NCBI GenBank assembly: GCA_014284505.1
Contig: JAAFYY010000002.1
Coordinates: 1 to 64,000 of the forward strand
From: Streptacidiphilus sp. 4-A2
GTDB taxonomy: Bacteria; Actinomycetota; Actinomycetes; Streptomycetales; Streptomycetaceae
DNA length: 64,000 bases
Direction: 5' to 3'
Positions 14,486 to 58,375 of the stretch are shown piece after piece. The notes beneath the pieces were generated by a model. The model saw nothing but the letters and a program-made list of their open reading frames with translations, had not been told where the DNA came from and did no database searches. Numbering within the stretch: position 1 is the stretch's first letter; each line of letters begins with the position of its first letter. The position numbers and the translations under genes are program-made.

Positions 14486-15310
14486 ATGGTGGACCTGGAA
14501 CATGTCTTCTCTGCCTTTGAAGGCCAGCCCGTCGCAGCGGTCGTCGCCCCTTCGATGATGTTCGGCGGTGAGTGGTGGAAGGGCGATCGTATTCGCCTGG
14601 TCTTCGTCCGGGAGGGAGATGGCGTCCAGCCGTGCGCCGATGCGGACGGGTGGCAGCTGAATAAAAGCGTCTACCATCAGGGGCGGGCCTGCGAAATCGA
14701 GTACTGGTACAGCGGCGAGATCGAGGGTGCGATCGCCCGGGCGGAGGAATCGTCATCATCGGCAGCCGGCGGGGACGATATGCCGGCCTCGAGGACTCTC
14801 GCCATGTTCGACATTTTGATGCGCGGTGCCTGCCTGGCAGGGAATGAGCAGGTCGAGGCCTGGCGGGCGAGGCTGGCGCGGTCACATATTGCCGATGCCG
14901 TGTGCCGTACGGAGTTCAGGCAGGCCGGACGTCTTGTGGAGACGGCCATCTGTCTCCTCGCTGACGAGCTCCCCGAGCATGCGGTCATGCCGGCTGCGAC
15001 CGCGTTCGGTCACGCAATCGACGGTCACCTCGCCAGGAACGGCTACCTCATCCCATGCGCATCCGAACGGCGGCAGCGGTATCAGCTGCTGAGTTCGCAG
15101 ATGTCAGGCAGAGATCAGACGCTTTCTTTCGGGGATTACTGGAAGCTGCAGACCATGAGCGGCCTGGCGGAGGGCAGCTATGAAAGGTGGACCGTCCGGG
15201 CGGTGAACGCGTCACTTGCCATCATCGCCGCCGCGGACCTTGGACGTGATTTCGAGGGCCTGCTTGCCCTGTGGAGCACGGCCCATGCGGAAAGCGAAAT
15301 GTGCGGTTAG
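14486..15310 (+). CDS. Unknown protein, possible nucleotidyltransferase-like fold
   Basis: About 274 residues from ATG 14486 to a stop at 15310 in one uninterrupted frame. The N-terminal half has alternating strands (RIRLVFVRE, ACEIEYWYSG) that resemble the minimal nucleotidyltransferase layout, and the C-terminal half is helical. I see no clear GS...DxD catalytic set, so catalytic activity is doubtful and the fold call is tentative. The start is uncertain because the only Shine-Dalgarno-like GGAG is very close to the ATG. It is the first gene of the plus-strand set and lies 84 bases before the amidotransferase gene. Confidence 0.65.
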   Translation: MVDLEHVFSAFEGQPVAAVVAPSMMFGGEWWKGDRIRLVFVREGDGVQPCADADGWQLNKSVYHQGRACEIEYWYSGEIEGAIARAEESSSSAAGGDDMPASRTLAMFDILMRGACLAGNEQVEAWRARLARSHIADAVCRTEFRQAGRLVETAICLLADELPEHAVMPAATAFGHAIDGHLARNGYLIPCASERRQRYQLLSSQMSGRDQTLSFGDYWKLQTMSGLAEGSYERWTVRAVNASLAIIAAADLGRDFEGLLALWSTAHAESEMCG

Positions 15311-15394
15311 CTCGGCGGCGGCAGCTGGCCGGCAGGCGGTCAACGGCAGCGATCAGGTGAGATTCGGGCAACCGGGGGAACGGACCAGGTCAAG

Positions 15395-17187
15395 ATGTGC
15401 GGAATTGCGGGAATCGTAGGGCAGTTGACTCCAGAGCTCGATGCACAGTTGGCATCGATGGCAGACGGGCTCCGTCATCGGGGACCGGACTGTACTGCAC
15501 TGCTGAAGTCGGAGGAAAACCTTGCACATTTCGCCATGAATACCTTGGCGATTATTTCACCGGACGAATCGTACGGGCCCTATCGCGACCCGGAGAGCGG
15601 TGTGATGATCACGTTCAACGGTGAGATCTACAACTTTCGCGGCCTTGCGGAGCGCTGGGGCATCTCGATCGGCCGCCATGAGACGGACGCGCATCTCGTG
15701 CTGCGGGCCTACCAGAAGTTCGGCGACGCCTGCATCGACGAGTTCGACGGCATGTTCGCGCTGGCGATCTACGATCCCCGTGATCGGACGGTGATCCTCG
15801 CCCGGGACGGCTTTGGCGAGAAGCCTCTGTACTACGCAATGTCCGGCGAGTATCTGACCTTCGCCTCGGAGCTGAAGGCGGTCCAGCGGTTCAGTGAGTT
15901 TCCCGCGTCCATCCGTCCGGAGTGGCTGTCGATCGAAAATCTCCTCGATCAGGACACGCCGTACCCAGACATCAGCCTGCTCACGCCCGGGACCATGGTC
16001 AAGTTCAAGGTGGCGGGCGGGAGCACCGAGCCGATCACTCGTACCTACTGGAATCTCGCCAAGACCAAGAGCGAGGTCCCGGACACCTACGCCGACGCGC
16101 TCGATCGCTTCGAAGAGCTGATCCTGGCGGCTGCGAAGAGCCGGATTCCTGACACGAAGACGGCGATGATGCTCAGCGGCGGTCTGGACTCGGCGGTCCT
16201 TGCCTACTTGATCAAGCCCGACTATCTCGTCACGGTCCGTTATCCCAACGAAGACCAGTTGGACGAGCTGGACAGAGCGACCCTGGTCGCCGAGGACCTT
16301 GGGATGGACCTCATCGTCGTCGAGCCGACGCCGGCCGACTTTGTGACGCGGTCAGGCCGGATCATCGAATCCATCGACTATCCGCTCGGGAACGCAAGCC
16401 TCCTGTCGGAGTACATGGGCTGCGAGAGAATCGCGGAGACCGGCGCGCGGGTTGTCTTCGGGGGAACGGGCCCGGACGAACTGCTTCTCGGGTACGTGCG
16501 GCATTCCCTCCTCCTGGACGGCCCGGATGGGGTCGGCGAGATAGAGCGGCTGACGTCGTACGCCCGCATGACGCAGTCCTTCCAGGTCAGCATGGATCGA
16601 GGGCACTCGGCGGCTGAGCGGTACTCGACGCTGCTGCTGCGAGGTCCCGACCTGGATCTTCGGGTGCGACGGACGATCTATGAGTCCTTCAGGTCGGCGG
16701 GCAGCATCGACAGGGGGCTCAGCATCGCCGATCTGTCCGTTACCTTCCCCTCGCTTCTCCTGTCCTCCGACAAGATTTCCAGCGCATTCGGCCTCGAACG
16801 GCGCTCGCCTTACCTGGCGCGAGAACTGGCGGAGTACTGCTACGCGCTTCCGCTCGAGTACAAGCGCCTGGGATCCGGAGTGACAAAACGCATCCTCCGG
16901 GATCTCGCAGAGAGGATCGGAGTGCCCAGAGCGATCTGGGCGGATCCTGGAAAACAGGGATTCGCGTCGCCGGTGCCGAAGTGGCTGAACGGAGAACTCC
17001 ACGGCTGGTGGAGCGACCAGATATCCGAAGCAGTGGACGACGACCTGCTCCCTCCGCTGGCTCGTATCGCGATTCAGCGATCTCTGGCCGGGAGTGACAG
17101 CGACTTCGACCGCGACGGATGCAAGCGCTGTTCATCGCCCTGTGGTGGAAGCGGGTCTGCAGGTCAGCAGCTCAGCTCCAGCCGTGA
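15395..17187 (+). CDS. Asparagine synthase (glutamine-hydrolysing)-type amidotransferase
   Basis: Class II glutamine amidotransferase fused to a synthetase domain, about 597 residues. Cys2 (MCGIAG) is the glutaminase nucleophile. RHRGPD, FNGEIYNF and DGFGEKPLYY follow. The ATP PP-loop MLSGGLDSAVLAYL is near residue 260. The end MQALFIALWWKRV is typical but lies one frame over after a shift near 17118, so the apparent continuous frame into the next gene is an artefact. Enzymes of this family amidate carboxylates using glutamine and ATP; in antibiotic pathways the substrate is often not aspartate. The UDP-glucose dehydrogenase directly downstream suggests a uronic-acid carboxyl as substrate (inference). 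Confidence 0.9.
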
Positions 17188-17209
17188 CCCAGAAAGCCAG
17201 CAAGTCTCT

Positions 17210-18568
17210 ATGAAACGCGGGACGGATCCGTTGCCACCAGTCGGGAACCTCAATATCAGCGTGATCGGCACGGGATACCTCGGTGTCACTCACGCGGCGT
17301 GCATGGCAGAGCTCGGCTTCGACGTGCTGGCTCTGGATGTGGACAAGGAAAAGGTCGCCAATCTGGCAGCCGGCCGCCTCACCATCTACGAGCAGGGACT
17401 GGAGTCCCTGCTGAGCCGCAATCTCGGCAATGGTCGGCTTCGTTTCACCACAGACTACGAGGAGGTGGCCTCCTTCGGCGATGTCCATTTCGTGTGTGTG
17501 GGAACGCCGCAGCGGACAGCCGGCCGTGGAACGGACCTCAGCCAGGTCGAGAGTGTGATCAGGTCGCTCGCCCCGCACCTGGAACGCGAATGCCTCGTCG
17601 TCGGCAAGTCGACCGTGCCGGTCGGTACTGCGGAACGGCTGGCAGCTCTACTGTCGGAACTGGCGCCCGTCGGCGCCGAGGCGAAGCTTGCCTGGAATCC
17701 CGAGTTCCTCAGGGAGAGCTTCGCCGTCCAGGACACCCTGCATCCGGATCGCATCGTCGTGGGAGCAACCTCTTCTCAGGCAGTAGAGATATTGCGTCGC
17801 GTGTACGGATCGATGATCGAGAGGCGCACGCCGTTCATTGTCACGGATTTCCGGACTGCCGAGCTGGTCAAGGTTGCCGCGAACTCCTTTCTGGCGACCA
17901 AGATCTCATTCATCAACGCCATGGCCGAAGTCTGTGAGGCCGTCGACGCCGACGTCACGACGCTCGCGGAAGCCCTCTCCCACGACGAGCGCATCGGCGG
18001 CCGATTCCTGGTTCCCGGAATCGGGTACGGTGGCGGCTGCCTACCCAAAGACGTGCGTGGATTCATCGATCGGGTCGAGGAACTGGGGCTGAGCCGGGTC
18101 CAGTCCTTCCTCGAGGGGGTTGACCGGATCAACCTCGCACGCCGGGACCGGATTGTGGAGCTCGTGCGCGAGCAGCTTGACGGTGGTTTTGCGGGCAGGA
18201 CCGTGGCGGTGCTCGGAGCGGCCTTCAAGCCCAACTCCGACGATGTGCGCGATTCACCGGCCCTGGCGGTCGCGGAGTTCATCCGCAAGGCCGGGGGCCA
18301 GGTGAAGGTCTATGACCCGGAGGCCACGCACAATGCGACCAGGACCCATCCGCAGCTGAGTCATCAGAAATCGTTGCTGGAGACCGTCACGGGGGCCGAC
18401 GCGGTCCTGCTCCTGACGGAATGGGATGAATTTCGCAAGATGGAGCCCGACGGCCTTGCCTTCGCGGTTCGACGCAAGAACATCGTGGACGGCCGGAGTG
18501 TGCTCGATCCAAGCAGCTGGCGGACGGCCGGCTGGGATTTCCGCGCACCTGGAAGACCCGGGCACTAG
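17210..18568 (+). CDS. UDP-glucose 6-dehydrogenase
   Basis: Intact frame of about 452 residues from ATG 17210. The N-terminal NAD-binding motif ISVIGTGYLGVTHAACMAE and the catalytic block GIGYGGGCLPKDVRGF, with its thiohemiacetal-forming cysteine, are complete. NPEFLRES, the helix VKVAANSFLATKISFINAMAE and the C-terminal GAAFKPNSDDVRDSPA are also present. The family oxidises UDP-glucose to UDP-glucuronate with two NAD+. The gene starts 22 bases after the amidotransferase stop. No epimerase, decarboxylase or glycosyltransferase is visible in the set, so the sugar's destination is unclear. This is one of the few long genes here without a frameshift. Confidence 0.93.
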   Translation: MKRGTDPLPPVGNLNISVIGTGYLGVTHAACMAELGFDVLALDVDKEKVANLAAGRLTIYEQGLESLLSRNLGNGRLRFTTDYEEVASFGDVHFVCVGTPQRTAGRGTDLSQVESVIRSLAPHLERECLVVGKSTVPVGTAERLAALLSELAPVGAEAKLAWNPEFLRESFAVQDTLHPDRIVVGATSSQAVEILRRVYGSMIERRTPFIVTDFRTAELVKVAANSFLATKISFINAMAEVCEAVDADVTTLAEALSHDERIGGRFLVPGIGYGGGCLPKDVRGFIDRVEELGLSRVQSFLEGVDRINLARRDRIVELVREQLDGGFAGRTVAVLGAAFKPNSDDVRDSPALAVAEFIRKAGGQVKVYDPEATHNATRTHPQLSHQKSLLETVTGADAVLLLTEWDEFRKMEPDGLAFAVRRKNIVDGRSVLDPSSWRTAGWDFRAPGRPGH

Positions 18569-18628
18569 CCGACGCCGCGGAGAAATCCCGGCAGACCTCG
18601 CTCTTTCCACACCCCGAAGGAATTCGAC

Positions 18629-20142
18629 ATGCTTCCAGCTGCCAGTCGGCTCGACACCCTGATTCTCGAATCCTGCGCCGAGCATGCAGATCGAATCGCC
18701 CTCATCGATGATTCCGGTCACGTCACCTACGGCGACCTGGCGGCGAGGGCGCGCCAGATCTGCGAGGAGCTGCGCCTGGCCGGACACCGGCGGGGAGAGC
18801 CGGTCCTCGTCGCCGTGGACAATCAACACGGCGATATGGCGTGTCAGCTGGCCGCGTGGGCGGCGGGCGGCACCGTGGTGCCGATCCATCGGGGAGTGCC
18901 GGCGCCGCAGCTCGCGGAGGTGATGGGGCGGACCGGTTCGGCCTGGCTGTTGTGCGAGCCATCGCTTCTCCCCGCCCAGTGGGCCGGGATCCCGCGTGAG
19001 GCCCGGGGACGTGGGTGCACCGACTCCAGGTGTCGGGGGAGCCACCTGCGGAACTCGGCGCCGACGAGGCCCTGGTCATCTTCACGTCGGGTTCGACGGG
19101 AACTCCCAAGGGAGTTGTCCTGTCTCACCAGGCATTCACCGAGAAGCTCTCGGCCATCAACAGCGTGCTCCCTTTCTCCGCCGGCGAAGAGAATCTGCAC
19201 GTCCTGCATGCGAACTTCAGCTTCGGGCAATGGACCTCCCTGCTGACCCTTGCCACAGGTGGCACTCTGCGCCTCGTCCGGCGCTTCAACGCCGTCTCAG
19301 TGCTTCAGCAGCTGGTGGAGCACAGGGTCGCGAAATCCGCGGTGGTACCGAGCATGCTGCGGCTCCTCGTCCGGGAACTCGAGGACGAGGCAAACGGCGA
19401 GCTCGCGAAGGAGCTGGCGGAGAGGGGTTCGCCCGCTCTCTGGATCTCCGGAGGGGAACCGCTGTCCTCGGGGCTCGGCGGCAAGCTGCGGAGGCTGATG
19501 CCGGGTTCCGGAATGGCGGATGTGTTCGGGCTGAGCGAGAGCTCGACGTCGGATTTCATTCTCACCCCGGATCGCTATGACGCAGAGTCGGGAACGCTGG
19601 GCAGGCCCAGTCCCGGTGTGACCTACAAGGTGGCGGACGGCAACGGGGCAGAGGCCGGGCCGGGACAGGTCGGCGAACTCTGCATCTCGACGCCCTATCT
19701 GATGACGGGCTACATGGGTGATCCAGGCGCGACGTCCGAGGCGATCCAGGAGGGCTGGCTCCACACCGGGGACCTGGCGACGGTCGGTGCGGAAGACGGT
19801 CTCGTGAGGCTGGTCGGGAGGGCCAAGCACCTCATTTCCCGCGGTGGCATCAAGATTTCTCCGCTGGAGATCGAAGATTGCTTCTCGGCTCATCCAGAAT
19901 GCGTGGCAAGTCTTGCCGTCGGAATTCCCGACGAAATCATGGGCGAGCGTATCGAGCTGTTTTTCGTTGCGGCGCGCCAGCCGCTTCCGAGCGCGGACGA
20001 GCTTCGTCGCTGGGCAAAGTCAAGGCTGGAGGCTTACAAGCTCCCCGACATCATCCATTTTCTGGACGCGCTGCCCCAGGGGCGTACCGGGAAAATCGAC
20101 AGGATTTCCGCGCGGCGAATGGCCGAAGAGATCAGGGGATAG
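18629..20142 (+). CDS. AMP-forming acyl/aryl ligase, frame-disrupted
   Basis: Adenylate-forming enzyme of about 503 residues with start ATG 18629 after GAAGGA. The core motifs are FTSGSTGTPKGVVLSHQAF (P-loop), VFGLSESS, GWLHTGDLATV, VGRAKHLISRGGIKISPLE and the C-terminal PQGRTGKIDR with the catalytic lysine. A frameshift lies near 19005. It is a stand-alone enzyme with no carrier protein fused or nearby, so it may form a CoA thioester, load a distant carrier or make an amide directly. The substrate cannot be read from the sequence. Confidence 0.9.
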
Positions 20143-20146
20143 GAAA

Positions 20147-20976
20147 GTGACTCTGTTTGGCGTCTCGACCGGACTTCTCCCCATCGGGAGGATTTCGAGC
20201 AGTTGCTCGTCTACAATCCAGAAGTCATCGAGTTCTACAACTATCCGAGTTCCATGCTGGACCGGATCCGCGATTTCTGTGACAGTCATGGGATCAGGCC
20301 CGCGCTGCATACCCCGACGCCCTACGACGAGGACGAACCGCTGCGCCGGTTCGCGCCCACGGGTCCGGACGCAGCGGAGGCAAAGAAGGCGCTGCGCCTC
20401 GTCGAGAGGACAGTCGAGACCGCAGCGCGCTTCAACGCACTCCATGTGGTCGTGCATTTTCCGAGCCCGTACCCTCCTTATCCGGAGGAGGGGTTCCAGG
20501 AATTCTGTTCCGACTTCCTCGGGCAGCTGGACTCCTGGGTCGGCGAATATGGCGTGCCAATTCTCATCGAGAATCTGACGCCGCACCCGGCCCTGCACTC
20601 GCCCCAGCACTACCGGGATATCCTGCTGAGCCATCCGGCGCTGGGCTTCTGCCTCGATTTCGGCCATGCTCATCTACTGGGGGAGCCGGGGGCGCCGGAG
20701 AAATACGCCGAGCTCCTGGGCGAATCGATTCAGAGCATGCACATCTACAACACCTCCGTCGAAAGAAATCCGACGAGCGGGCACGAGGTCGGCACCCCGG
20801 AGCAGAAGGCTGCGGACGGGTTCCTCGAACTGGGGACGTTGATTCCAGCAGTGCTGAGGACGGCGAGGCCGGCCGCAGCGATTCTGGAATACAGCGGAAG
20901 GTCGATGGATCTCGTCGAGGCCGAAAAGAGTGCCCGCTGGATCCGCAATATGATCGTCAAGGCAAGGGAGAACTGA
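20147..20976 (+). CDS. Sugar-phosphate isomerase/epimerase-like TIM barrel, frame-disrupted
   Basis: About 275 residues in the xylose-isomerase-like (AP endonuclease 2) TIM-barrel family. It starts at GTG 20147 (VTLFGVSTGLLP), five bases after the previous stop. A frame change near 20195 leads to VYNPEVIEFYNYPS. Metal-ligand-type residues are seen in HVVVHFPSP, PILIENLTPHP, LGFCLDFGHAHL and AAILEYSG. Members isomerise sugars or act on inositol-type compounds. In this set it is a candidate sugar-tailoring enzyme. Confidence 0.82.
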
Positions 20977-20977
20977 A

Positions 20978-22405
20978 ATGGCGAATGCCCACCATGTAGA
21001 GCTTCTCGTGGCCGTTGCGACGGCCACGGGCGAGGACCGGCTCGGCGCGCTCAAGCTGCTGTCGGAAAGGACACAGCACCTGATCGACAAGACCGGTCGA
21101 GGGGTCGACCTGGTGGAAGCCGACCTGAGCAACCTCGACCTGAACGGTGTCGATCTGCGGAAGGCGACTCTGAGCCGGGCCCTGCTCCACGGAACCAACC
21201 TCTCGGGCGCGAACCTGGCGGAGATCACCATGGTTTGTCCCGGCATGGAGCGGACGAACCTGTCGGGTGCGAGCCTGCGTTCGGCGTATGTCCACGCCCT
21301 GGCGGCACAGACCTGCAAGTTCGACGGCGCCGACCTCTCCGGTCTCCGCGACGCCACAGGGACGATGTTCCACGGATGCAGCATGCGCGGGGTGGACCTG
21401 TCGGCCGGACACCTGGCGGGCTCCTTCTACTACCAATGCGATCTTTCGGATTCCTCGTTCGACAGGACGAACCTCCAGGGCTCGCTGATCAACGAGTGCC
21501 TGCTCGACAACGCGTCCTTCACGGACGCACGGATGGACCAGCTGTCCATCACCAAATCGAGCCTGCGGAGCACTGACTTCACGGGGGCCAGTGGCCGCAG
21601 CGTGGCGTTCCAGCGGCTCACCGCCAGCGACGGCCTGGTCCTCTCCGGCGCCAGCTTTCCGCTGCTGCGAATCGATTCGGTGCAGGGGTCGGGCTGGAAA
21701 GCCGTTCAGCTCTCGGCCACCGAGGCCGACCTCGTCGACGTCGCCGCGGACCAGGTCGACGCGAGGGGTGCCGACCTGGGCGGCTCCCGGATCAGGGGCT
21801 GCTCGTTCGCCGGCGCGGACTTCACCGGTGCGCAGTTCAGCGATGCGAAGATCAGCGCCAGTCGCCTGAGCGATGCGTCCTTGACCGACTGTCACGGTGA
21901 GAACCTGCACGTGGTCGAAAGCGATCTGGCCGGCGCCGACATGTCGAGCTTCATCGGCCGGTGCATGACCGTCCGGGACTCCAATATGGCTGGTGTCCGG
22001 CTTCGGAATGCCAATCTCTACCGGGCGATGATCACTGGCGATCCGCCGCGGGGCATGAGCCTGCGCGGCGCGGATCTGACCAATGCCACGCTCGTCCAGG
22101 CCTACATCGCGGCGGACCTGCGTGGAGCGCGGCTGGTCGGGGCGAACGCCGCCTACAGCCGGTTCAGCCAGTCGGACCTGAGTGGCGCGAACCTCCAGGG
22201 GGCCGGCATGTACCAGTCGACGTGGGTCAAGGTCGAGGCGCACGAAGCCGACGTCACCGGGCTCAAGGCGCCCATTTTCGTCGACAGGTGTCCTGGCCTT
22301 GCCACGGCGCTGGCGAAGGTCGAGGACCCGTCGGCACGGACGCTGGAGCAATACGTGGCCGGCTTCGCGAAGCTGTTGAAGCTCGGCCGCACCGGCTCGA
22401 CCTGA
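20978..22405 (+). CDS. Pentapeptide-repeat protein
   Basis: An intact frame of 475 residues built almost entirely of A(D/N)LxX pentapeptides, for example LVEADLSNLDLNGVDLRKA and GADFTGAQFSDAKIS, preceded by a helical N-terminus. The repeats should form a right-handed quadrilateral beta-helix. It starts two bases after the isomerase stop, so translation is probably coupled. Some pentapeptide proteins protect DNA gyrase from toxins (Qnr, McbG, AlbG) by mimicking DNA. This one is longer and irregular, so an immunity role is possible but unproven. There is no signal peptide or membrane segment. Confidence 0.92.
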   Translation: MANAHHVELLVAVATATGEDRLGALKLLSERTQHLIDKTGRGVDLVEADLSNLDLNGVDLRKATLSRALLHGTNLSGANLAEITMVCPGMERTNLSGASLRSAYVHALAAQTCKFDGADLSGLRDATGTMFHGCSMRGVDLSAGHLAGSFYYQCDLSDSSFDRTNLQGSLINECLLDNASFTDARMDQLSITKSSLRSTDFTGASGRSVAFQRLTASDGLVLSGASFPLLRIDSVQGSGWKAVQLSATEADLVDVAADQVDARGADLGGSRIRGCSFAGADFTGAQFSDAKISASRLSDASLTDCHGENLHVVESDLAGADMSSFIGRCMTVRDSNMAGVRLRNANLYRAMITGDPPRGMSLRGADLTNATLVQAYIAADLRGARLVGANAAYSRFSQSDLSGANLQGAGMYQSTWVKVEAHEADVTGLKAPIFVDRCPGLATALAKVEDPSARTLEQYVAGFAKLLKLGRTGST

Positions 22406-22535
22406 TCGTCACTCTTCCGTCGGCTGCCGTCCCGACGCGGTCGCCGCACACCGACCGTGCCGTCTTCGAGGTGGGACGACGGCGCTGCCCAGCCAGGCCT
22501 CGGAGCGGTTCATACATGTCAGAAGGAGCGAGACC

Positions 22536-23687
22536 ATGGAAATCACTGCCGATACCTGGGCTGCGGGGAGCGCGCAGCTGGCCGATGCCGGTGTGACGAT
22601 CGGGGCGAACGTACGCGTCAGCGTCGGCGACTTCACAGTCGGTGCAGGCGTGGTGATCCGCGACAATGTGACGATCGTCGCGGACAGCCTGGAGCTGGGC
22701 GACGGCGTGGTGATCGATGCCGGCTGCGATCTGCGATCCGGCAGGATCTCTCTCGGTCGCAGGACCGAGCTCCAGCGGAATGTCCGTGTGCTGGTCGCGG
22801 ATTCCTTCGTTGTGGCGGAGGCCGGCCGGGTCGAGCGCGATGTGTCCATCACCTGCCGGAGCTTCGAAGCAGGCCGGCTCCTGTACCTGGGCAATGACAG
22901 CTCGGTGGGCTATGGCGGGACGACCGCCTCGACCTCGCATGTCAAGATCGGTGACCGGGTTGCGATCGGACCGCATTCGATCCTGAACGCGAATGATTCG
23001 ATCACATTCGAAGACCAGGTCGGCTCGGGGTGCTACCTCTCGGTCTGGACACACGGGTTCCACTTCGGGCACCGACTGCTGGACGGCTATGAGGCAACCC
23101 TCGCGCCCGTGCACGTCGCACGGAATGCCTGGCTTGGCTACCATGTCACGTTGCTTCCCGGCACGACCATCGGCGAGAACACGATCCTCGCCGCCGGCGC
23201 CGTCGCGGCCTCGGACCTGCCGGCCAACGTCCTTGCTGCGGGTATCCCCGCGACGGTCAAGCGAGAACTCAGCGCGACCGTCATGAAGGACGACGTCGCC
23301 CGTGAGCGGATCGACGGAATCATGTCCGCCTGGGTCGCGGAGCTCGACTGGAAGGGATACAGCGCCAGGTTGATCGACGACGGCGTCGTCGAGTTCGAGC
23401 AGAGCCACCTGTTCTACCTGGACGCTCCGGGCACTGATCGCGGGGCGGCGGGGGAGCAGCGGAGGGTCGTCGTCCTCTCCCTGGAAGACAAGCCGCGCCC
23501 CGAGCACGGCGGTGACGGCTCGCTGACGTTCTTGCTCCGCTCGGGAGTGCTGATCGGCGAACTGGACGCGGTCAGTCATGACCTGCGGGACTTCCTGCGG
23601 AGGCACGCACTGCCCTGCGGTGACCAGCACTGCTTCGAAAGCCTTCCGAACAAGCGTTTCCAGAGGCTCGTAAATACCTTCGCCTAG
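22536..23687 (+). CDS. Left-handed beta-helix (hexapeptide-repeat) acyltransferase
   Basis: An intact frame of 383 residues after AAGGAG and ATG 22536. The first 250 residues carry [LIV]GxxxxI hexapeptide turns (VTIGANVRVSVGDFTVGAG, VKIGDRVAIGPHSILNAND, TTIGENTILAAGAVAASDL), ending in the NVLAAGIPATV motif of LbH acyl- and acetyltransferases. A separate C-terminal domain of about 120 residues has no resemblance I recognise. A candidate catalytic histidine is in WTHGFHFGH. It probably acylates a sugar or amine of the product. Confidence 0.88.
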   Translation: MEITADTWAAGSAQLADAGVTIGANVRVSVGDFTVGAGVVIRDNVTIVADSLELGDGVVIDAGCDLRSGRISLGRRTELQRNVRVLVADSFVVAEAGRVERDVSITCRSFEAGRLLYLGNDSSVGYGGTTASTSHVKIGDRVAIGPHSILNANDSITFEDQVGSGCYLSVWTHGFHFGHRLLDGYEATLAPVHVARNAWLGYHVTLLPGTTIGENTILAAGAVAASDLPANVLAAGIPATVKRELSATVMKDDVARERIDGIMSAWVAELDWKGYSARLIDDGVVEFEQSHLFYLDAPGTDRGAAGEQRRVVVLSLEDKPRPEHGGDGSLTFLLRSGVLIGELDAVSHDLRDFLRRHALPCGDQHCFESLPNKRFQRLVNTFA

Positions 23688-23748
23688 AGCTCATGGGTAG
23701 CGGAGCCGTTCGCCGGTGCGGTGAATCGATATGGGAGGCAGTAAGCAA

Positions 23749-24509: not shown

Positions 24510-25628
24510 TGCTCGGCGAACCGGCAATGGAGGTCATGGAACCTCTGGTGCGCCGGGTGAAGCAGGTCTGTGACCACTACCTTGCGCCGCGGGCGGAGGA
24601 GGTCGCGGCAGGCAGGGTCTCGCGTGCGGCCCTGGACGAACTGGCGGAGGCCGGCGTTTTTGGTCTCTCCGTCTACCAGCCGGCGGCCCCGTTCACCGCG
24701 GCGAATGTCCAGCGGGAGGTGACGGAGCTCCTGGCCGCGGCCGACGCCTCCACCTGGTTCGTCACGGCGCAGCACCACCATCCGCTGCGGGAAGTCGCCG
24801 GGGCCGACGGCCCGCGCGCGACCGCTGGCTCAAGGGGCTGGCGTCGGGCCGGCTGATTTCGGGCGTCGCGACGTCGCACCTGAGAAGGAGCGGCCCGCCG
24901 GCCGTCACCGCCGTGCGCGAGGGGAACGGCTGGCGGCTCAACGGCCGGATCGCGTGGCTGACGGGATGGTCGCTGGTCGATGTTGTCATGGTTGGTGCCG
25001 TGACGCCCGACGACGAGGTGCTCTTCGTCATGCTGCCCTGCAAGGAAGAGGGCGGGCTCACCAAGATCCAGGACCATCGGCTGTGGAGCATGGATGCCAC
25101 CAGCACGGTCGCGGTGGGTCTGCATGAGGTCCACGTGGGCGCGGACCAGCAGGTCGGCCTGTACCCGGGCGAGGTCTGGCGGCTTCAGGACATTCACCGG
25201 CAACCGAACGTGAATCCCGGAGTCTTCGGGACCATTCGTGCCGCCGTAGCGCTGCTCTCCCATGGCTCCGCGTCCTGTGGAGGGGATTTTCAGGAGTTGG
25301 CCGAGGCCCTCGCTGAGGAGTACTCCGCGCTGCGGAAGGAGGCGTACCGCCTCATGGACGAGGTCGAGCCGCACCGTGAGCTGGACTATCGCCTGCAGAT
25401 CCGGGCTGCGGCGCTGGAGCTCGGATGCCGCGCGTCCTCCGCGTGCATCGCCGCCGAGGGTGGCCGCGGGCTGGGCCGCGCGAGCCGGTCCGGCCGGCTG
25501 CTCGGCGAGAGCCATTTTCACCTGGTGCAGGCGCAGACCGCCTCCGTGCGCAGGGCGACCTCGCGTACGTACCTCGAGGTCGGCAACGGCCGGGAACTGT
25601 CCGTTTCCGGAACGGGACGGTTCGCCTC

Positions 25629-25632
<4 letters not shown>
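24503..25632 (+). CDS. Acyl-CoA dehydrogenase-like flavoenzyme, frame-disrupted
   Basis: About 376 residues with the order of acyl-CoA dehydrogenase and flavin-dependent monooxygenase domains: N-terminal helices (LDELAEAGVFGLSVYQP), a middle beta domain (LISGVATSH, NGWRLNGRIAWLTGWSLVD) and a C-terminal helical domain. The frame shifts near 24825. The catalytic glutamate of beta-oxidation enzymes is not obvious. Natural-product members of this superfamily often oxygenate or desaturate carrier-bound or CoA-bound intermediates. The gene overlaps both neighbours (ATGA with the aminotransferase). Confidence 0.83.
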
Positions 25633-26780
<1,148 letters not shown>

Positions 26781-26788
<8 letters not shown>

Positions 26789-27479
26789 ACCATCGCGAAC
26801 CGAAGAGCTGGCCAACAACTTGTGCCTCGTGCGGGAACGGATCGCGGCAGCGGCCCGGAGTGCCGGCAGGCGGGTCGATGAGATCACTCTGATCGGGGTG
26901 ACCAAGGGCTGGCCTGCGGACGACGTCAGAATCCTGCACGGTCTCGGGCTGAAACACTTCGCCGAGAACATCGACCAGCATGCCGCGCCCAAGGCTGAGG
27001 CCTGCCGGGACCTCGATATCGAATGGCACTTCGTAGGGCAGTTGCAGTCCAACAAGGCCGCATCGGTCGCGAGGTACGCCAGTGTGGTGCAGTCCGTGGA
27101 CCGCGCCTCCCTGGTGCATGCGCTGTCCAAGGCCGCGTCGCGGGCGGAGCGTTCCCTGGACTGCTTGGTGCAGGTCAAATTCGATTCCGATCAGGGGCGC
27201 GGGCGCATCGGTCGAGCAGGTCCTCGATCTCGCCGCGGCGATCGAAGCGGCCGAGGGCCTTCGGTTCACGGGCCTCATGACCGTGGCCCCATCGATTCGG
27301 CGCCCAGTGAGGTCTTCTCGCGGTTCGCCGACCTCTCCCGTTCCGTTCGGGCTGTGCACTCCGAGGCGGGGCTGATCTCGGCAGGCATGAGCGGAGATTT
27401 CGAGGAAGCCATCTGCGCCGGTGCGACTCACGTGAGAGTCGGCTCCGCTCTGCTCGGCGAACGGATCAAGCTCCGATGA
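26781..27479 (+). CDS. YggS/PROSC-type PLP-binding protein, frame-disrupted
   Basis: About 233 residues of the YggS family, a single alanine-racemase-like TIM barrel. PLP-lysine region: ITLIGVTKGWPADDVR. It continues with FAENIDQHAAPKAEA, WHFVGQLQSNKAASVARYA and AGLISAGMSGDFEEAI...THVRVGSALLGER. The frame moves near 27200 and 27290. YggS proteins maintain PLP supply and normally sit near cell-division genes. Finding one between an aminotransferase and an MFS exporter suggests a cluster-specific copy. Confidence 0.85.
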
Positions 27480-27495
27480 AAAGGATTCGATAAAT

Positions 27496-28820
27496 ATGGC
27501 AACGGTAAAAGATCGTGTGCGCATACGGTCGTGGTCCCTCAGCACGGTCAAATCGGCTGAGGACAGTCGGGAGGAAGGCGACTTCCGTCGGCTGGTCCTC
27601 AGCCGTGCCATCTCGATGTTCGGCAGCGAGGTCTCGGCGGTCGCGATTCCGCTGATCGCGGCGACCACGCTGGACGCTGGTCCGCGGGACATGGGCATGC
27701 TGACCGCCGCCGCCTTCGCGCCGAACCTCGTCCTGCCACTGCTGGCCGCCCCCTTTATCGACCGGATGAAGGAACGCAGGTCGGCGCTCATCCTGGCCGA
27801 CCTGATCCGGGCCGGCCTGCTGACGCTGCTCTTCGTCGCCGGACTGATGCACCAGCTGTCGCTGGGCCTGCTCTGGGCAGTCGTGCTTTCGGTCAGCGCC
27901 TGCACGATGCTGTCGGTCCTGGCGCGTTCCGCCTACCTGCCATGCCTGCTTCCCCCGGACAAGCTGTTCGCGCGAATTCCCGGCTCCGCAGCGCCGACGC
28001 CGTCAGTGAGGTGATGGGCCCAGGCGCCGCGGCTGGGCTGCTGGCCATCGCGGGCCCGGTCGGTCTCCTGGCCATCGATGCGTTCTCCTACGTCTTCTCG
28101 GCCGAGACGTTGCGCAGGGTGCGGTTCCGTGAAGAGCAGCGGACCGGTGGGACGACGGCGGACGGTGAGCAGCCGGAGAAGCCGAGCTTCTGGTCCGACT
28201 TCACGGTCGGGATGAGATTCATCGGGAAGACCCCTGGATTCCGGGGAATCATCGGTGGCTGGCGCACTTCAATTTCTTCATGAGCGGCCTGATGGCACTG
28301 TTCGTGCTTTACGCGGTCAGGGACCTGCATTTCAACAGCTCAATGATTGCGGCGTTCTTCATATTCACTGGAATCGGCGGGACCATTGGTGGGTTCCTGT
28401 CCTCGCGGATCGCGAGCAAGATGGGGCTCGGCACCGCGATCGTCGGCTCCTGCGGCTGCGCGTGCCTGGTCATGACGGGATTCGCCGCGGTGGACTTCGG
28501 CCCGGCGATCAGTTTTGCTGTTCTCGCCGTACTCGAGGTCCTGGGCATGATCGCGATCGTGGTCTTCGATGTCTGTGCGATCACGGTCTTCCAGATCGTT
28601 TCGCCGACCGACCTCGTCGCCCGGGTAACGTCCGGTCAGCTGTTTCTCACTCAGGGAACCCGGACCTTCGGCGCCTTGATCTTCGGTTTTCTGGGCGCCT
28701 GGGTCGGTTTTGCGGCTGGCGATGGGGACCGCCGCTGTGCTGAGCTTCGGGGCGATCTTCTGGCTGCTCATTCCCGGCGAGTTCAAGGCCAACCAGCGAG
28801 TTGTCTTCGTAAAGGAATGA
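27496..28820 (+). CDS. MFS transporter, frame-disrupted
   Basis: Major facilitator protein of about 440 residues. A cytoplasmic N-terminus leads to FRRLVLSRAISMFGSEVSAV and roughly twelve hydrophobic segments, for example LSLGLLWAVVLSVSACTMLS and FAVLAVLEVLGMIAIVVFDV. The intracellular loop FIDRMKERRSALILADL matches the MFS loop 2-3 pattern. The frame changes near 27965, 28258 and 28725. It resembles drug/macrolide exporters of the MFS_3 type and is the likely product exporter. Its TGA overlaps the HAD start as ATGA. Confidence 0.85.
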
Positions 28821-29497
28821 ATCCTATGGTGCTGCGCAAGAAAGCGCTCCTGATCGATGCGGGGGCGTTCTCATCCGGCCCGCGCTGACGACGGTCGAGA
28901 CCGCACTGGGGATAGGACCGGTCGATCCGGAGCAGTGGGACGCGGCCTACTATCGGGCCATCGCCGACAGGAGCCACGGGGCTTCTGACGGAGATTTCGT
29001 AGTGGACCTGCTCGCCGCGTTCGGAGTTCCGCGCGATCGCGCCACGGAACTGGCCGGCGACGCATTCGGCGAGAGGATGTGGAAAGAGCCGCGGGTCGTC
29101 CGTGAGGCGAGTGTCCTGCTGTCGCGACTGGCTGCGTCGGGCGTGTCCGTCGCCGTGGTCTCGAACAGCGACGGAACCATCGAAGAGACGCTGGGAAGCC
29201 TCGGCCTGTGCCAGGTCGGCCCAGGCCGGGGGGTGCCGGTCGCCGGAATTATTGACTCGCACGTCCTCGGCGTGGAGAAGCCGGATCCGGAGATATACCG
29301 AACGGCTCTGGATGTGTGCGGGTAACGGCATCGGAAGCGATCTTTGTGGGCGATGTCGTATGGAGCGACATCGAGGGTGCCGAGCGGATGGGAATTTCCG
29401 CCTTCACTACGACCCCTTCGGCTACTGCGGTTCCGTCGCCCACACCGACATAGGCCACCTTTCGGAGATCGAAAATTTTATGACGCCGGCCGGATGA
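28817..29497 (+). CDS. HAD-family hydrolase, frame-disrupted
   Basis: About 225 residues. HAD motif I is altered to LLIDAGGVLI (the second aspartate of DxD is replaced by glycine), motif II is VAVVSNSDG, the motif III lysine is in VLGVEKPDPEIY, and motif IV is IFVGDVVWSDIEGAERMG. Frame changes lie in the G run near 28865 and near 29322 and 29410. The first aspartate, which is the nucleophile, is retained, but the missing acid would weaken phosphatase turnover. It could be a phosphatase of a sugar or acyl phosphate, or a non-hydrolytic homologue. Confidence 0.8.
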
Positions 29498-29531
29498 CCC
29501 GGAAGGCGGTCCGGTCGAGGCCGTGGTCGCC

Positions 29532-29585
29532 ATGAATACCGGCACCATGCCCGAAGTCGAAATGTTCGCCGGCCGCAGCTGGTAG
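29532..29585 (+). CDS. Possible 17-residue peptide upstream of the ATP-grasp gene
   Basis: An ATG at 29532 opens a short frame encoding MNTGTMPEVEMFAGRSW and stopping 30 bases before the ATP-grasp start. It has no good ribosome-binding site and no known peptide motif. I list it because ATP-grasp enzymes can act on short peptides, but it may be nothing more than spacer. Confidence 0.15.
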   Translation: MNTGTMPEVEMFAGRSW

Positions 29586-29615
29586 GACGTCACTGCAACC
29601 AGATAGGGCAAAGTA

Positions 29616-30886
29616 ATGCGCACGATCTTCCGGCCGGAGTTTCGGGTCGGACCTGATTCTTGTGTTGGGCTGGGAGCCGCTGGTCGACGAGGCCTTCGTT
29701 GCTCTCGGCCTGGAGTACGTGCTTGTGGCGAAGGCGGACGAGTGGCTCGATGCCAACAACCGCGCCAAGGCGGCCCGGCTGATCCTCTCGGTCGCGGACT
29801 ACACCAGCGTCGAGCAGATCGTGGGCGCCGTCTGCCGGGCGGGGCTCGACCTGGGAAATATCAAGGTGGTTCATACCGGCGATGAATTCGCGGTGGTCAC
29901 CGGGGTGGTGCTGAACCAGAGTCTCGGCCTGAAGAGCCCGTTGACGATGAAATCTGCGACCGCGTTCCGGGACAAGTTCTTCCAGAAGAGAATTCTGCAG
30001 GCCGCCGATGTGCCGGTGGCGGCCAGCTTTCTCCTGGAGCGGCTCGACCTCCTCGACGAGGAGTCCGCGGGGACGTTTCCCTACCCGGCAGTCCTGAAGC
30101 CGGCGGCGGGAGCTGCGTCGCAGAACACCTCGAAGGTCGACAGCGCCGAGGAGCTCCTGGCGGCGGCGCGTGCACTGGTGGACGGCGGAGCAGGCGAGAT
30201 GCCGTTCGTCGTCGAGGAGTACATCGTCGGTAGCGAGATGCACATCGACGGTGTCATTCGAGAGGGCAGGGAGGTGCTGTTCGGCATCTCGAAATACACG
30301 ACCAACCCGCTGCACGCGCTGGGCGACGACATCCTGGGCTCCGTGATCCTGGATCCCGACGAGCACGCGGAGTACTACACCAAGGTCCGCGCGGTCGCGA
30401 TTCCCGCCCTGCGGGCTCTCGGCCTGACCGACGGTGTCTTCCACATGGAGATGTTCGACACCGAGTCCGGTTTCGTGTTCGGCGAGTGCGGAGCGCGTCC
30501 CCCGGCAGGTGGGGCGTGCGGACGGTGCGCCGGAAGTTCGGCATCGACCTTCCACAGGAGCACATCAAGGCGGCCTTGGGGATGCCTCCTGGTACTCCGG
30601 TGGTCTCCCCGGGCACGGTCGGCGGCAGCACACTGGCGACACCGGCCGGCCTCCTGCGCTCTCTTCCGGAGGAGGCCGAGGTCCTGCAGTTCGAGGATGT
30701 CCTGTACGTCTTCCTGAGGGTGCACGCCGGGATGGTGATGGGGACATGACGGAAGCCTCCGCGGCATGGCCGGGGTTCATCATCATGGAGAACGCCACCG
30801 AGAGCGGCCTGCGCAGCCGGATGGCGGAGATGGTTGCCTGGTTCAGGACCCAGGTGGTGGTTTCCCATGCAGACGCGTCTCGATAA
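29616..30886 (+). CDS. ATP-grasp ligase, frame-disrupted
   Basis: About 420 residues of the carbamoyl-phosphate-synthetase/biotin-carboxylase-like ATP-grasp superfamily. After a pre-ATP-grasp Rossmann half it has the usual TAFRDKFFQKRILQAADVPV and AVLKPAAGAASQNTSKV nucleotide loop, FVVEEYIVGSEMHIDGVI, and the metal-binding HMEMFDTESGFVFGECGARP. The frame changes near 29640, 30500 and 30745. Such proteins join a carboxylate to an amine through an acyl phosphate. It overlaps the LysRS-like gene by 20 bases, which suggests that the two products work together. Confidence 0.87.
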
Positions 30887-32342
30887 ATGCGCGTCGCTTC
30901 GGGCCGCGGGGCGGGATCCCTACCCTGCGGCGATGCCGACCAGTCACGATCTGGCGTCGCTGCGGGCGGAGTTCTCCGAACTGCCGCCTGACACCGCCAG
31001 AGGTGTGCGCGCCGTCGTCTCGGGCAGGGTGGTGGCTCAGCGGGCGCACCGCCGGCTCAGTTTCGCGGTCATCCGGCAGGGCACCGCCGAGTTGCAGCTC
31101 ATGATGGCCGAGGGCGCCTTGGCCGGGTCCAGTTGGCAGCAGTGGCGTGAGCTGGTCGACATCGGTGACCACGTCATGGCCGAGGGAGAAGTGATCACCA
31201 CACGCACTGGTGAACTCTCCCTCGCCGTGACGTCGTGGTCGATGCTCGGAAAATCGCATTCGGCGGCTCTCCGTACGGGTCCCGGGCGTCCCCCGGGTTC
31301 CCACCCGCGCTATCTGGAGATGGTCGCCGACCCGGCGAAGATACAGCTGGTACGCGACCGGGCATCGACGACCCGGGCACTTCGCGAGGCTCTGTTCGCG
31401 ATGGATTACGAAGAGATGGAGACACCGCTTCTGCAGGCGGCCGTGAGCGGTGGTTCCCGGCCCTTTTCCACCTGGATGAACGCCTGGGGAAGCGAGCTCT
31501 ATCTGCGCGCGACTTCGGAGCTCTACTTGAAACGTCTGGTCGCGGGAGGCATGGACCGGATCTTCGAGATCAACCGTGCGTTCAGGAACGAAGGCGTCGA
31601 CGCGCGCCACTTTCCGGAATTCACCCTGCTCGAGGCCTACACCGCGAATACCGACTACACCCACGGCGCGCTGCTCGCGGAAAGCCTGGTCCGTGAGGTC
31701 TTCGCCGCCGTGACGGAGCCCGGTGCCGGCGATTCACTCCCCGAGTTCCAGAGGGCGACCTTCGTCGACCTGCTCGCCGCCCATTGTTCGCTGGACATCG
31801 ACCCGGATTCGCCCTGGCGTGACCTCCGCGTCAAGGCGACCGCCGAGGGATACCCCGATGCGGCCGATGTCGACGACGAGACGTTCGCGATGAACCTCTT
31901 CCGGGAGGTCGTACAGCCGACGCTGCGGCGACCGACTTTTGTCTTCGACTTCCCCGAGAAGGCCGCCATCATGGCTCGCCGGAGCCGGCTCCGATCCCAC
32001 GCCGTGGAGTGCTGGAGCCTTTTCATCGCCGGTCTCGATGTCGGGCAGGGCTGCACCGAGCTGACCGATCCGATGGAACAGCGAGAGCGATTCCTGAGGC
32101 AGCAGGGCCGGTCCGACATTCCAGCGGAGACGCCCCGGCCGACCTTCGACGAGGAGTTTCTCGGTGCGCTCTACTGCGGGCTGCCGCCGCTTGGCGGACT
32201 CAGCCTGGGAATCGAGCGCCTGCTGATGGCTGTCAAAGGGGTGCAGAGCCTCCGCGACTGCCAGTCCCACCCGATCAGCAGACCGCGTCGCGGCCCGCGC
32301 GCATCGGGGTGGGCACCTTCCTGCGATGACCACGCGCCCTGA
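30867..32342 (+). CDS. Class II lysyl-tRNA synthetase-like protein
   Basis: About 491 residues in a single frame, long enough to retain the N-terminal OB-fold (VRAVVSGRVVAQRAHRRLSF) as well as the catalytic core. Motif 2 reads EINRAFRNEGVDARHFPEFT and motif 3 reads GLSLGIERLLMAV. ELYLKRLVAGGMDRIFEI is close to canonical LysRS. The motif 1 region and the C-terminus are more divergent, and the last 20 residues may be in the wrong frame. It could be a real LysRS paralogue, for self-resistance, or an aminoacyl-AMP or lysyl-transfer enzyme used in biosynthesis. Confidence 0.87.
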   Translation: MQTRLDKCASLRAAGRDPYPAAMPTSHDLASLRAEFSELPPDTARGVRAVVSGRVVAQRAHRRLSFAVIRQGTAELQLMMAEGALAGSSWQQWRELVDIGDHVMAEGEVITTRTGELSLAVTSWSMLGKSHSAALRTGPGRPPGSHPRYLEMVADPAKIQLVRDRASTTRALREALFAMDYEEMETPLLQAAVSGGSRPFSTWMNAWGSELYLRATSELYLKRLVAGGMDRIFEINRAFRNEGVDARHFPEFTLLEAYTANTDYTHGALLAESLVREVFAAVTEPGAGDSLPEFQRATFVDLLAAHCSLDIDPDSPWRDLRVKATAEGYPDAADVDDETFAMNLFREVVQPTLRRPTFVFDFPEKAAIMARRSRLRSHAVECWSLFIAGLDVGQGCTELTDPMEQRERFLRQQGRSDIPAETPRPTFDEEFLGALYCGLPPLGGLSLGIERLLMAVKGVQSLRDCQSHPISRPRRGPRASGWAPSCDDHAP

Positions 32343-32397
32343 CACCGCAGGAGTGAGTCTCCTTTCGGATCCTGCCGGGAGACCTTGAGTCGGACCG

Positions 32398-32418
32398 GTC
32401 CTCGGACGGTCCGAGGAC
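32398..32418 (+). terminator. Short hairpin between LysRS-like and CoA-transferase genes
   Basis: A nine-base-pair stem (32398-32406 with 32410-32418) closes a three-base loop in the 158-base gap. It may attenuate or end transcription before the CoA transferase gene. There is no T tract. Confidence 0.4.
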
Positions 32419-32500
32419 GCTGATCCACGGCGTTCCGGAGCTCCAGGCCGGACTTGAGCGCAAGAGCAAGGCGACACCTTCTCCAGATTAGGGAGTCATC

Positions 32501-33640
32501 ATGAAGAGAGGCCCGCTCGCCGGGATTCGAGTACTCGAATTGGCCGGCATCGGTCCCTGTCCGTTCGCGGCCATGCTGCTGGGTGATCTCGGTGCGGAGG
32601 TGGTCCGCGTCGATCGGATCAGTGCAGTTTCACAAGCTGGGCTGGGCGATGCGGACTTCACCAACCGCGGCAAGCGATCGATCGGCATCGATCTCAAGCA
32701 CCCTGAAGGACGTGAGGCGGTACTGAAACTGGTCGAGCAATCCGATGTCCTGCTGGAGGGCTTCCGCCCCGGGGTCACCGAACGTCTGGGGATCGGGCCC
32801 GACGTATGCCTTTCCCGCAAGAGACTGGTCTATGGCAGAATGACGGGCTGGGGCCAGGAGGGCTCGCTTTCCGGGAGTGCAGGCCATGACATCGGATACA
32901 TAGCGGTGACAGGAGTGCTGCACGCGATCGGCCGGTCGGGCGGGCCGCCACAGGTGCCGATGAACCTGCTCGGCGACTTCGCCGGCGGCAGCATGTACCT
33001 GGTCACGGGAGTGCTGGCCGCGCTACTTGAGGCGAACGTGAGCGGACGAGGTCAGACAGTTGACGCTGCCATCGTTGATGGAACGGCACATATCTCCACC
33101 TTCATCCACGGCTTGGCTGCTCAGGGCAAGTGGATCGACGAACGAGGCGTCAACGAATTGGATACCGGAACCCCCTGGTACGACGTCTACGAGACGGGCG
33201 ACGGTAAGCACGTTGCTGTTGGCCCCATGGAGCCTCAGTTCTACACGGAGTTCGTCCGTCTCCTCGGTCTGGCAGATGAAGATCTCCCCGACCAGCATGA
33301 CCGGGAAGGCTGGCCGGTTCTGCGCGCGCGCTACCAGGAGGCCTTCAAGACTCGTACCAGGGACGAATGGGCGAAGGTCTTTCTGCCCGGTGACTCCTGT
33401 GTCGCCCCGGTCCTATCCCTTCAGGAAGCCGTTGAGCATCCGTACAGTACAGAACGCGAAGTATTCGTCGAGCACGCAGGACACCGACAGCCGGCACCGG
33501 CCCCTCGCTTCTCACGAACCAAACCCGGCTTGCTCCGGCCGCCCGCACAGGCTGGAGCACACACCATGGAGATCCTTGGTGAGATCGGGATCGAGGATCC
33601 CGGAAAGATCCTCGACTCGGGAGCATTCGCACAGCGCTGA
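32501..33640 (+). CDS. CaiB/BaiF-type CoA transferase or acyl-CoA racemase
   Basis: An intact frame of 379 residues with GGGAG just upstream of ATG 32501. The N-terminal signature GIRVLELAGIGPCPFAAMLLG DLGAEVV with RVDR, then GRMTGWGQEG, GHDIGYIAVTG and MNLLGDFAGGSMYL, is typical of family III CoA transferases, and the GHD and GDFAGG blocks match alpha-methylacyl-CoA racemase. Such racemases invert the alpha carbon of a CoA thioester. Together with the AMP ligase and the ACAD-like enzyme it implies a CoA-bound acid in the pathway. Confidence 0.9.
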   Translation: MKRGPLAGIRVLELAGIGPCPFAAMLLGDLGAEVVRVDRISAVSQAGLGDADFTNRGKRSIGIDLKHPEGREAVLKLVEQSDVLLEGFRPGVTERLGIGPDVCLSRKRLVYGRMTGWGQEGSLSGSAGHDIGYIAVTGVLHAIGRSGGPPQVPMNLLGDFAGGSMYLVTGVLAALLEANVSGRGQTVDAAIVDGTAHISTFIHGLAAQGKWIDERGVNELDTGTPWYDVYETGDGKHVAVGPMEPQFYTEFVRLLGLADEDLPDQHDREGWPVLRARYQEAFKTRTRDEWAKVFLPGDSCVAPVLSLQEAVEHPYSTEREVFVEHAGHRQPAPAPRFSRTKPGLLRPPAQAGAHTMEILGEIGIEDPGKILDSGAFAQR

Positions 33641-43380: not shown

Positions 43381-43381
43381 G

Positions 43382-58368: not shown

Positions 58369-58375
58369 GAGCACC

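What the first reader, a model, noticed from the sequence alone, without database searches (positions are those of the whole stretch)
14486..33640. Undescribed biosynthetic gene set without NRPS or PKS modules
Sixteen co-directional genes with ATGA overlaps or gaps of a few bases combine amidotransferase, UDP-glucose dehydrogenase, AMP ligase, isomerase, acyltransferase, methyltransferase, ACAD-like flavoenzyme, aminotransferase, PLP protein, exporter, HAD, ATP-grasp, LysRS-like and CoA transferase. I do not recognise this combination from any described cluster. Base use is less GC-extreme than in the flanks, which hints at transfer as a unit.
Basis: partly seen in the sequence, partly recalled or inferred. 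Interest (0 to 1): 0.85.

Follow-up and report, generated by a model that had tools for sequence, protein, structure and literature searches.

The report
Gene cluster with two spare lysyl-tRNA synthetases
A bacterium of the Streptomyces family carries a rare gene set that probably makes a small molecule containing lysine, together with two extra lysyl-tRNA synthetases, one probably used to build the molecule and one probably protecting the maker; sister gene sets in other strains appear to do the same with histidine.

Summary
The gene set is real, but its coordinates and gene list need correction. It runs to 35535, not 33640. The missed last gene is a class I lysyl-tRNA synthetase (LysRS); the "LysRS-like" gene is class II. 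Several "ATGA overlaps" are frame breaks inside single genes, and housekeeping genes of this assembly (76.5% complete) are broken too.

The set belongs to a rare cluster family in Streptomycetaceae. Four core genes occur in 5 of 5 lineages: AMP ligase, TIM barrel, pentapeptide-repeat protein, methyltransferase. Three lineages are Lys-type: their class II LysRS-like proteins form one clade (100/100, long branches) with shared active-site-region changes. Two lineages are His-type: a HisRS-like protein plus a complete second HisRS, 26-31% identical to housekeeping HisRS.

Best model: the synthetase-like protein adds lysine or histidine to a shared scaffold (compare SbzA), the product inhibits the cognate synthetase, and a different synthetase protects the producer. 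This host's own LysRS is class II, 0 of 13 congeners have class I over the cut-off, and its only class I LysRS lies in the cluster.

Product, enzyme activities and resistance are untested. Ten paper searches found no description; no cluster database was available.

The parts
14486..15310 (+). Unknown protein; membership in the set uncertain
   Evidence: No Pfam or NCBIfam match; no match in the related clusters
15395..17250 (+). AsnB-type glutamine amidotransferase (end approximate; same open frame as the next gene)
   Evidence: TIGR01536 277.2 bits, cut-off 267.1; absent from the other related clusters examined
17250..18568 (+). Nucleotide-sugar (UDP-glucose type) dehydrogenase (start approximate)
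   Evidence: TIGR03026 431 bits, cut-off 189.8; 25-28% identical to the sugar dehydrogenases of the related clusters
18629..20142 (+). AMP ligase, core gene, one frame break near 19.0 kb
   Evidence: PF00501 in two frames; 58% to Mg1
20185..20976 (+). TIM-barrel protein of the sugar isomerase / endonuclease IV type, core gene
   Evidence: PF01261; 48-55% to three relatives
20978..22405 (+). Pentapeptide-repeat protein, core gene, 475 aa
   Evidence: PF00805; 62% to Mg1, 52% to G029 over the full length
22536..23687 (+). Hexapeptide-repeat acyltransferase
   Evidence: PF00132; present in 4 of 5 lineages
23731..24509 (+). Class I methyltransferase, core gene, one frame break near 24.0 kb
   Evidence: PF08241/PF08242; two frames against Mg1 and G977 homologues
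24503..25632 (+). Remote acyl-CoA-dehydrogenase-like protein, one frame break near 24.82 kb
   Evidence: PF02771 and PF02770 below their cut-offs; 54-58% to a G977 protein that matches ACAD chains at best E 5.8e-07
25629..26788 (+). Class I/II aminotransferase, one frame break near 26.29 kb
   Evidence: PF00155 in two frames; 63% to Mg1
26781..27479 (+). YggS-type PLP protein
   Evidence: PF01168; 51% to Mg1
27496..28888 (+). MFS transporter, in pieces
   Evidence: PF07690 in two frames, below its cut-off in each
28813..29600 (+). HAD-type hydrolase (end approximate)
   Evidence: PF00702, below its cut-off
29662..30834 (+). ATP-grasp amino-acid ligase type (end approximate)
   Evidence: PF13535; L-amino acid ligase 4wd3, E 1.3e-14
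30867..32342 (+). Class II LysRS-like protein with altered active-site region
   Evidence: 287.9 bits to TIGR00499, cut-off 427.6; clade and signature with G977 and G813
32501..33640 (+). Family III CoA-transferase
   Evidence: PF02515 259.5 bits
33834..35535 (+). Class I LysRS over three frames, the only one found in this genome
   Evidence: PF01921 pieces at 33891-34385, 34433-34645 and 34648-34965; first and last pieces 64-65% to a class I LysRS of a family member, with HLGN and KMSGS

Best explanation
This is a specialised-metabolite gene cluster, one member of a small family whose members share a core and differ in an amino-acid module. Shown by sequence: the shared core; a synthetase-like protein (LysRS-like here, HisRS-like in sister clusters); and a further, complete synthetase for the same amino acid that is unrelated to, or far from, the host's own. 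Inferred: the core enzymes build an amine-bearing, probably sugar-derived scaffold; the LysRS-like protein attaches lysine or a lysine analogue to it, from its adenylate or from lysyl-tRNA; the product inhibits ordinary class II LysRS; the MFS protein exports it; and the class I LysRS, of a different fold, keeps charging tRNA-Lys in the producer. His-type clusters would do the same with a HisRS-like protein and a divergent HisRS.
For: Core shared by 5 of 5 lineages. LysRS-like protein in 3 of 3 Lys-type clusters and in none of the His-type stretches searched; HisRS-like and second HisRS in 2 of 2 His-type lineages and in none of the Lys-type stretches. The three LysRS-like proteins form one clade, 100/100, and share GQGCTELTDP, NAW and R[AG]T, changed in 14 of 14 other LysRS at the first stretch. 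All of 3 His-type genomes examined have a housekeeping HisRS as well as the cluster one; 3 genomes without a His-type cluster have one. Cluster HisRS are 26-31% identical to housekeeping HisRS. The host's own LysRS is class II; 0 of 13 congeners have class I over the cut-off; the single class I LysRS of this genome is in the cluster. Precedent: the tRNA-synthetase-like SbzA moves isoleucine from Ile-tRNA onto altemicidin, giving an IleRS inhibitor (PMC6331615, abstract and passages).
Against: No product, activity or resistance is known. The HisRS-like proteins have lost the usual catalytic motifs, so they do not act as normal adenylating enzymes. The LysRS-like proteins keep the class II motifs and an OB-fold domain and could simply charge tRNA. 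G813, G977 and the His-type hosts have a class I LysRS outside the cluster, the likely background of their groups, so only the window's case is informative for class I immunity. The class I gene was found in no other cluster and might be an independent neighbour. The LysRS-like branches are long and the tree tool warns of it.
Confidence: 0.5

Rival explanations
1. Aminoacyl-tRNA-dependent biosynthesis whose product does not target a synthetase. The extra synthetases only supply or use lysyl- or histidyl-tRNA for the pathway, and immunity lies elsewhere, for example in the pentapeptide-repeat protein, as in gyrase protection.
For: A complete extra HisRS next to a HisRS-like protein without catalytic motifs fits a charge-then-transfer pair, as Ssp-IleRS and SbzA work (PMC6331615, passages). 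The pentapeptide-repeat protein is among the best conserved (52-70%) and its profile matches Qnr and MfpA chains.
Against: It does not explain why the charging enzyme is of the other LysRS class in a host with its own class II LysRS, or a divergent HisRS. Pentapeptide-repeat matches are general and prove no gyrase link.
Confidence: 0.25
2. A biosynthetic cluster in which the class I LysRS is only a neighbour brought in by an unrelated transfer; the class II LysRS-like protein alone is the pathway's enzyme or resistant target.
For: The class I gene lies at the cluster edge, after a 194-base gap, and is in no other cluster of the family. Class I LysRS is common in the family: 13 of 51 genomes over the cut-off, G000 included.
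Against: 0 of 13 congeners have it; same strand and low GC as the set; the His-type clusters independently carry a second complete synthetase.
Confidence: 0.15
3. A decayed or chance-assembled set of genes without present function.
For: Many frame breaks.
Against: Breaks occur likewise in housekeeping genes; completeness is 76.5% against 98-100% in the 13 congeners; order of eight genes, with one insertion each, is the same as in Mg1.
Confidence: 0.07

Closest known systems
SB-203208 / altemicidin (sbz) cluster of Streptomyces sp. NCIMB40513
   Same: A synthetase-like gene beside adenylate-forming enzymes in a roughly 20-kb cluster, the genome having another synthetase for the same amino acid; SbzA installs the amino acid and the products inhibit that synthetase (PMC6331615, abstract and passages).
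   Different: Ile and a class I synthetase there, Lys or His and class II-type proteins here; here the cluster also holds a complete second synthetase; GNAT enzymes, carrier proteins and cupin of sbz were not found here by Pfam.
Streptomyces sp. Mg1 / S. goshikiensis / ADI95-16 linear-plasmid clusters and the Streptantibioticus silvisoli cluster (annotated only by gene product names)
   Same: AMP ligase, TIM barrel, pentapeptide-repeat protein, hexapeptide protein, methyltransferase and aminotransferase; same order as the window in Mg1.
   Different: HisRS and HisRS-like protein instead of LysRS types; PIG-L and epimerase instead of AsnB; order rearranged in S. silvisoli.
Mycothiol ligase MshC with deacetylase MshB (recalled)
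   Same: A synthetase paralogue that acylates an amino sugar freed by a PIG-L deacetylase; PIG-L genes occur in 4 of 5 lineages.
   Different: No PIG-L match in the window's cluster; no cysteine or inositol genes seen; MshC is CysRS-like.
Paired class I and class II LysRS of Bacillus cereus
   Same: Both LysRS classes in one genome (PMC2916919, abstract in the listing and passages).
   Different: There the class I gene is under a T-box element; no biosynthetic cluster appears in the passages seen.

Membership tests
Shared-core cluster family (defined here) | AMP ligase, TIM barrel, pentapeptide-repeat protein and methyltransferase together | tested here: met
   All four in 8 of 8 loci, 5 lineages; in G813 the ligase and methyltransferase lie 12-17 kb from the rest
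Shared-core cluster family (defined here) | A synthetase-like protein in the cluster | tested here: met
   LysRS-like in window, G977, G813; HisRS-like in G029, Mg1, ADI95-16; not testable in the two 21-kb loci L017 and L018, though one search shows one in both genomes (G763, G764)
Shared-core cluster family (defined here) | A complete extra synthetase, distinct from the housekeeping one, in the cluster | tested here: inconclusive
   Met in the window and in His-type clusters; not in G977 or G813, whose class I LysRS lies outside the cluster
Genuine class II LysRS (TIGR00499) | Score over the curated cut-off | tested here: not met
   287.9 bits against 427.6
Genuine class I LysRS (PF01921) | Family match over the cut-off with HIGH- and KMSKS-type motifs | tested here: met
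   Three pieces over the cut-off; HLGN and KMSGS
sbz-type synthetase-inhibitor clusters | Synthetase-like enzyme transfers the amino acid to the metabolite | not testable with these tools
   Needs enzymology
sbz-type synthetase-inhibitor clusters | Product inhibits the cognate synthetase | not testable with these tools
   No product known
NRPS or PKS clusters | Modular synthase genes | tested here: not met
   No condensation, ketosynthase or carrier domain among the Pfam matches of the set

The most novel reading that the evidence does not exclude
A modular family of natural products in which the amino-acid head group and the target are switched together by exchanging a synthetase-like assembly protein and an immunity synthetase: a lysine series against class II LysRS, with the other LysRS class as immunity, and a histidine series against HisRS.
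Probability: 0.35. Interest if true: 0.88.

Novelty: new variant of a known kind. Interest (0 to 1): 0.72.

Why it matters
If true, this is self-protection by swapping in the other, unrelated class of an essential enzyme, and an inhibitor family whose amino-acid specificity is set by an exchangeable protein pair. It would give a genomic handle for finding LysRS- and HisRS-directed compounds. In the passages I saw of one review (PMC7916415) the natural LysRS inhibitor that appears is fungal cladosporin, and none appears for HisRS; the rest of that review was not read. It would also add class II synthetase paralogues to the enzymes that build small molecules.

Tried and rejected
Decayed cluster: rejected, because housekeeping genes are broken likewise. 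HisRS-like proteins as ordinary adenylating ligases: weakened by the loss of catalytic motifs. Bradyrhizobium sp. 187 plasmid as a member: of the core only the pentapeptide protein matched. Plasmid clusters of Streptomyces sp. MMBL 11-1, S. halstedii and NBC_00989 as members: they share a hexapeptide protein (36-39%) and weak PIG-L, epimerase (not tested for function) and AMP ligase matches, but no TIM, pentapeptide or synthetase-like match; the ACAD-type protein of S. halstedii (PF08028) is not detectably similar to that of G977. LysRS of Streptomyces sp. BHT-5-2 and of G387 as cluster-type LysRS: outside the clade or without the signature. G387 surroundings were fetched but not analysed. Cluster DNA against plasmids by megablast: no match. 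Ten paper searches: four gave no paper, six gave 1-3 papers, none on this combination as far as titles and abstract starts show. One search failed on a file path and was redone. One search used wrong reading frames and was redone, from which one near-identical row (HisRS-like of ADI95-16) was left out. No structure prediction, fold search, PHROGs or PADLOC search was run.
Full report
What is there. The window is the first 64 kb of an 86,441-base contig; the assembly's largest contig is 8.77 Mb. Flanking matches are a STAS protein upstream and an RHS-repeat protein downstream.

Frame breaks. Against homologues, the AMP ligase, methyltransferase, ACAD-like protein and aminotransferase change frame once and the class I LysRS twice. 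Of 19 congener ORFs tested on two regions of the main contig 13 matched, 9 of them in more than one frame; one of the 9 is antisense to another query. The genome's own class II LysRS is in two frames. Completeness is 76.5%, against 98-100% in the 13 congeners. I read the breaks as sequence errors and some 'overlaps' as artefacts.

A rare family. The hexapeptide protein led to genome G029, whose contig has the length of the Streptantibioticus silvisoli contig found by name. The pentapeptide protein led to linear plasmids of Streptomyces sp. Mg1, S. goshikiensis and ADI95-16 (7 records at 61%; 155 other matching plasmid records are under 60%, best Bradyrhizobium at 41%) and to contigs of S. goshikiensis JCM 4640 and strain CB00455. 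A TIM-barrel profile led to G813 and G977. Rarity, each sample drawn evenly from a larger group and with overlaps between samples: TIM barrel in 2 of 394 genomes of the family (E<=1e-12), 1 of 394 of the class (E<=1e-20), 2 of 392 of genus g9, by its size presumably Streptomyces (E<=1e-15), 7 plasmid records, all Streptomyces; pentapeptide protein in 1 of 396 of the phylum (E<=1e-40). Of the 11 loci, 3 are strong (52-62%); among the other 8, one search found pentapeptide matches in five, a YggS match in one and nothing in two.

Core and order. AMP ligase, TIM barrel, pentapeptide protein and methyltransferase are in 8 of 8 loci compared, 5 lineages; the hexapeptide protein is missing in G813, YggS in G029, the aminotransferase in G977 save a 54-residue match, PIG-L in the window. 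Order is the same in the window and in Mg1 apart from one inserted gene in each; in G029, G813 and G977 it is rearranged. AsnB, MFS, HAD, CoA-transferase and class I LysRS of the window matched none of the other loci.

Paired synthetases. Mg1-type and G029 clusters carry a complete HisRS and a HisRS-like protein; window, G813 and G977 carry a class II LysRS-like protein; neither kind matched in the other type's stretches. Cluster HisRS are 26-31% identical to housekeeping HisRS, which are 74-89% identical among themselves, and read RGLQYY where those read RGLDYY; the HisRS-like proteins have lost this motif and ERPQ. G029, G763 (S. goshikiensis) and G764 (CB00455) each have a housekeeping and a cluster HisRS over the cut-off and a HisRS-like protein under it; G000, G001 and G012 have one HisRS over the cut-off.

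The LysRS-like clade. The three proteins score 277-288 bits to TIGR00499 (cut-off 427.6). In a 17-row tree they form one group, 100/100; the tool warns of long branches (G813_like, win_like) and of unusual composition (G977_like), and the root is only the midpoint. All 3 read GQGCTELTDP; 14 of 14 other LysRS looked at read T or N for the Q and Y or F for the C. At the second stretch all 3 read NAW and R[AG]T; the 12 of 14 others where it was captured read NAY or NAL and RIA (17 of the loci then held). By recall of E. coli LysU these places line the lysine pocket; no call tested this. In 281 g9 genomes the profile of the three scores 878 and 864 bits for G977 and G813, both rows of the profile, and at most 452 for any other; that next one, G387, lacks the signature.

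The class I LysRS. Of 51 genomes 13 are over the cut-off, G000 included; of the 13 congeners none, G004 having one fragment under it. The host's own LysRS is class II and 92-97% identical, piece by piece, to three of four congeners (79-85% to the fourth). G813, G977, G029, G763 and G764 have a class I LysRS outside the cluster; G977 has no class II LysRS over the cut-off, G813 has one. So 3 of 3 Lys-type hosts have a class I LysRS, but two of the three are probably the background state of their genus; only the window's case is informative.

Working model. Core enzymes build an amine-bearing scaffold (inferred). The LysRS-like protein adds lysine or an analogue (inferred), as SbzA adds isoleucine to altemicidin (PMC6331615, abstract and passages). 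The product inhibits class II LysRS (inferred) and the class I LysRS keeps translation going (inferred); [quoted passage not shown] Shown: gene content, pairing, phylogeny. Not shown: product, activity, resistance. The HisRS-like proteins' lost motifs speak against a simple adenylating role and would suit transfer from charged tRNA.

Novelty. Ten paper searches found no description. The library lacks most subscription journals and no cluster database was available, so an existing description cannot be excluded. I file it as a new variant of a known kind: synthetase-linked biosynthetic clusters exist (sbz), but not, as far as I could find, with a shared core, an exchangeable Lys or His module and the other LysRS class.

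Noticed in passing
window 43373-44899 and 62460-64000: Two inverted copies of an IS (98.6% identical; DDE_Tnp_1 with DUF4096) enclose about 18 kb: a possible composite mobile unit next to the cluster.
   Followed up: no
window 56074-59497: A 3.4-kb stretch 95-96% identical to six large Streptomyces plasmid records, annotated in two of them as acyl-CoA desaturase and ferredoxin reductase: a widely shared mobile module.
   Followed up: no
window 1-315 and 469-783: A 99% identical inverted repeat right at the contig end; terminal structure or assembly artefact.
   Followed up: no
window 36720-41249: Large RHS-repeat protein on the - strand just downstream of the cluster.
   Followed up: no
L028 12481-15817 and G977:C1:245840-251550: An M16 peptidase, two uncharacterised proteins and three ABC exporter genes are shared by the His-type Mg1 and Lys-type G977 clusters (55-70%) but not found in the window.
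   Followed up: partly
L029 19878-22447 (Bradyrhizobium sp. 187 plasmid): The same pentapeptide-repeat protein (41%) beside a gene annotated pantoate--beta-alanine ligase, near IS21 and group II intron genes.
   Followed up: no
L041, L042, L043: Three Streptomyces linear plasmids share a conserved unnamed cluster: hexapeptide protein, AMP-binding protein, PIG-L, epimerase, aldo/keto reductase, trpD-like gene, GNAT.
   Followed up: partly
G813:C24:62257-70055: Urocanase and an aromatic amino acid (histidine-type) lyase near a Lys-type cluster.
   Followed up: no
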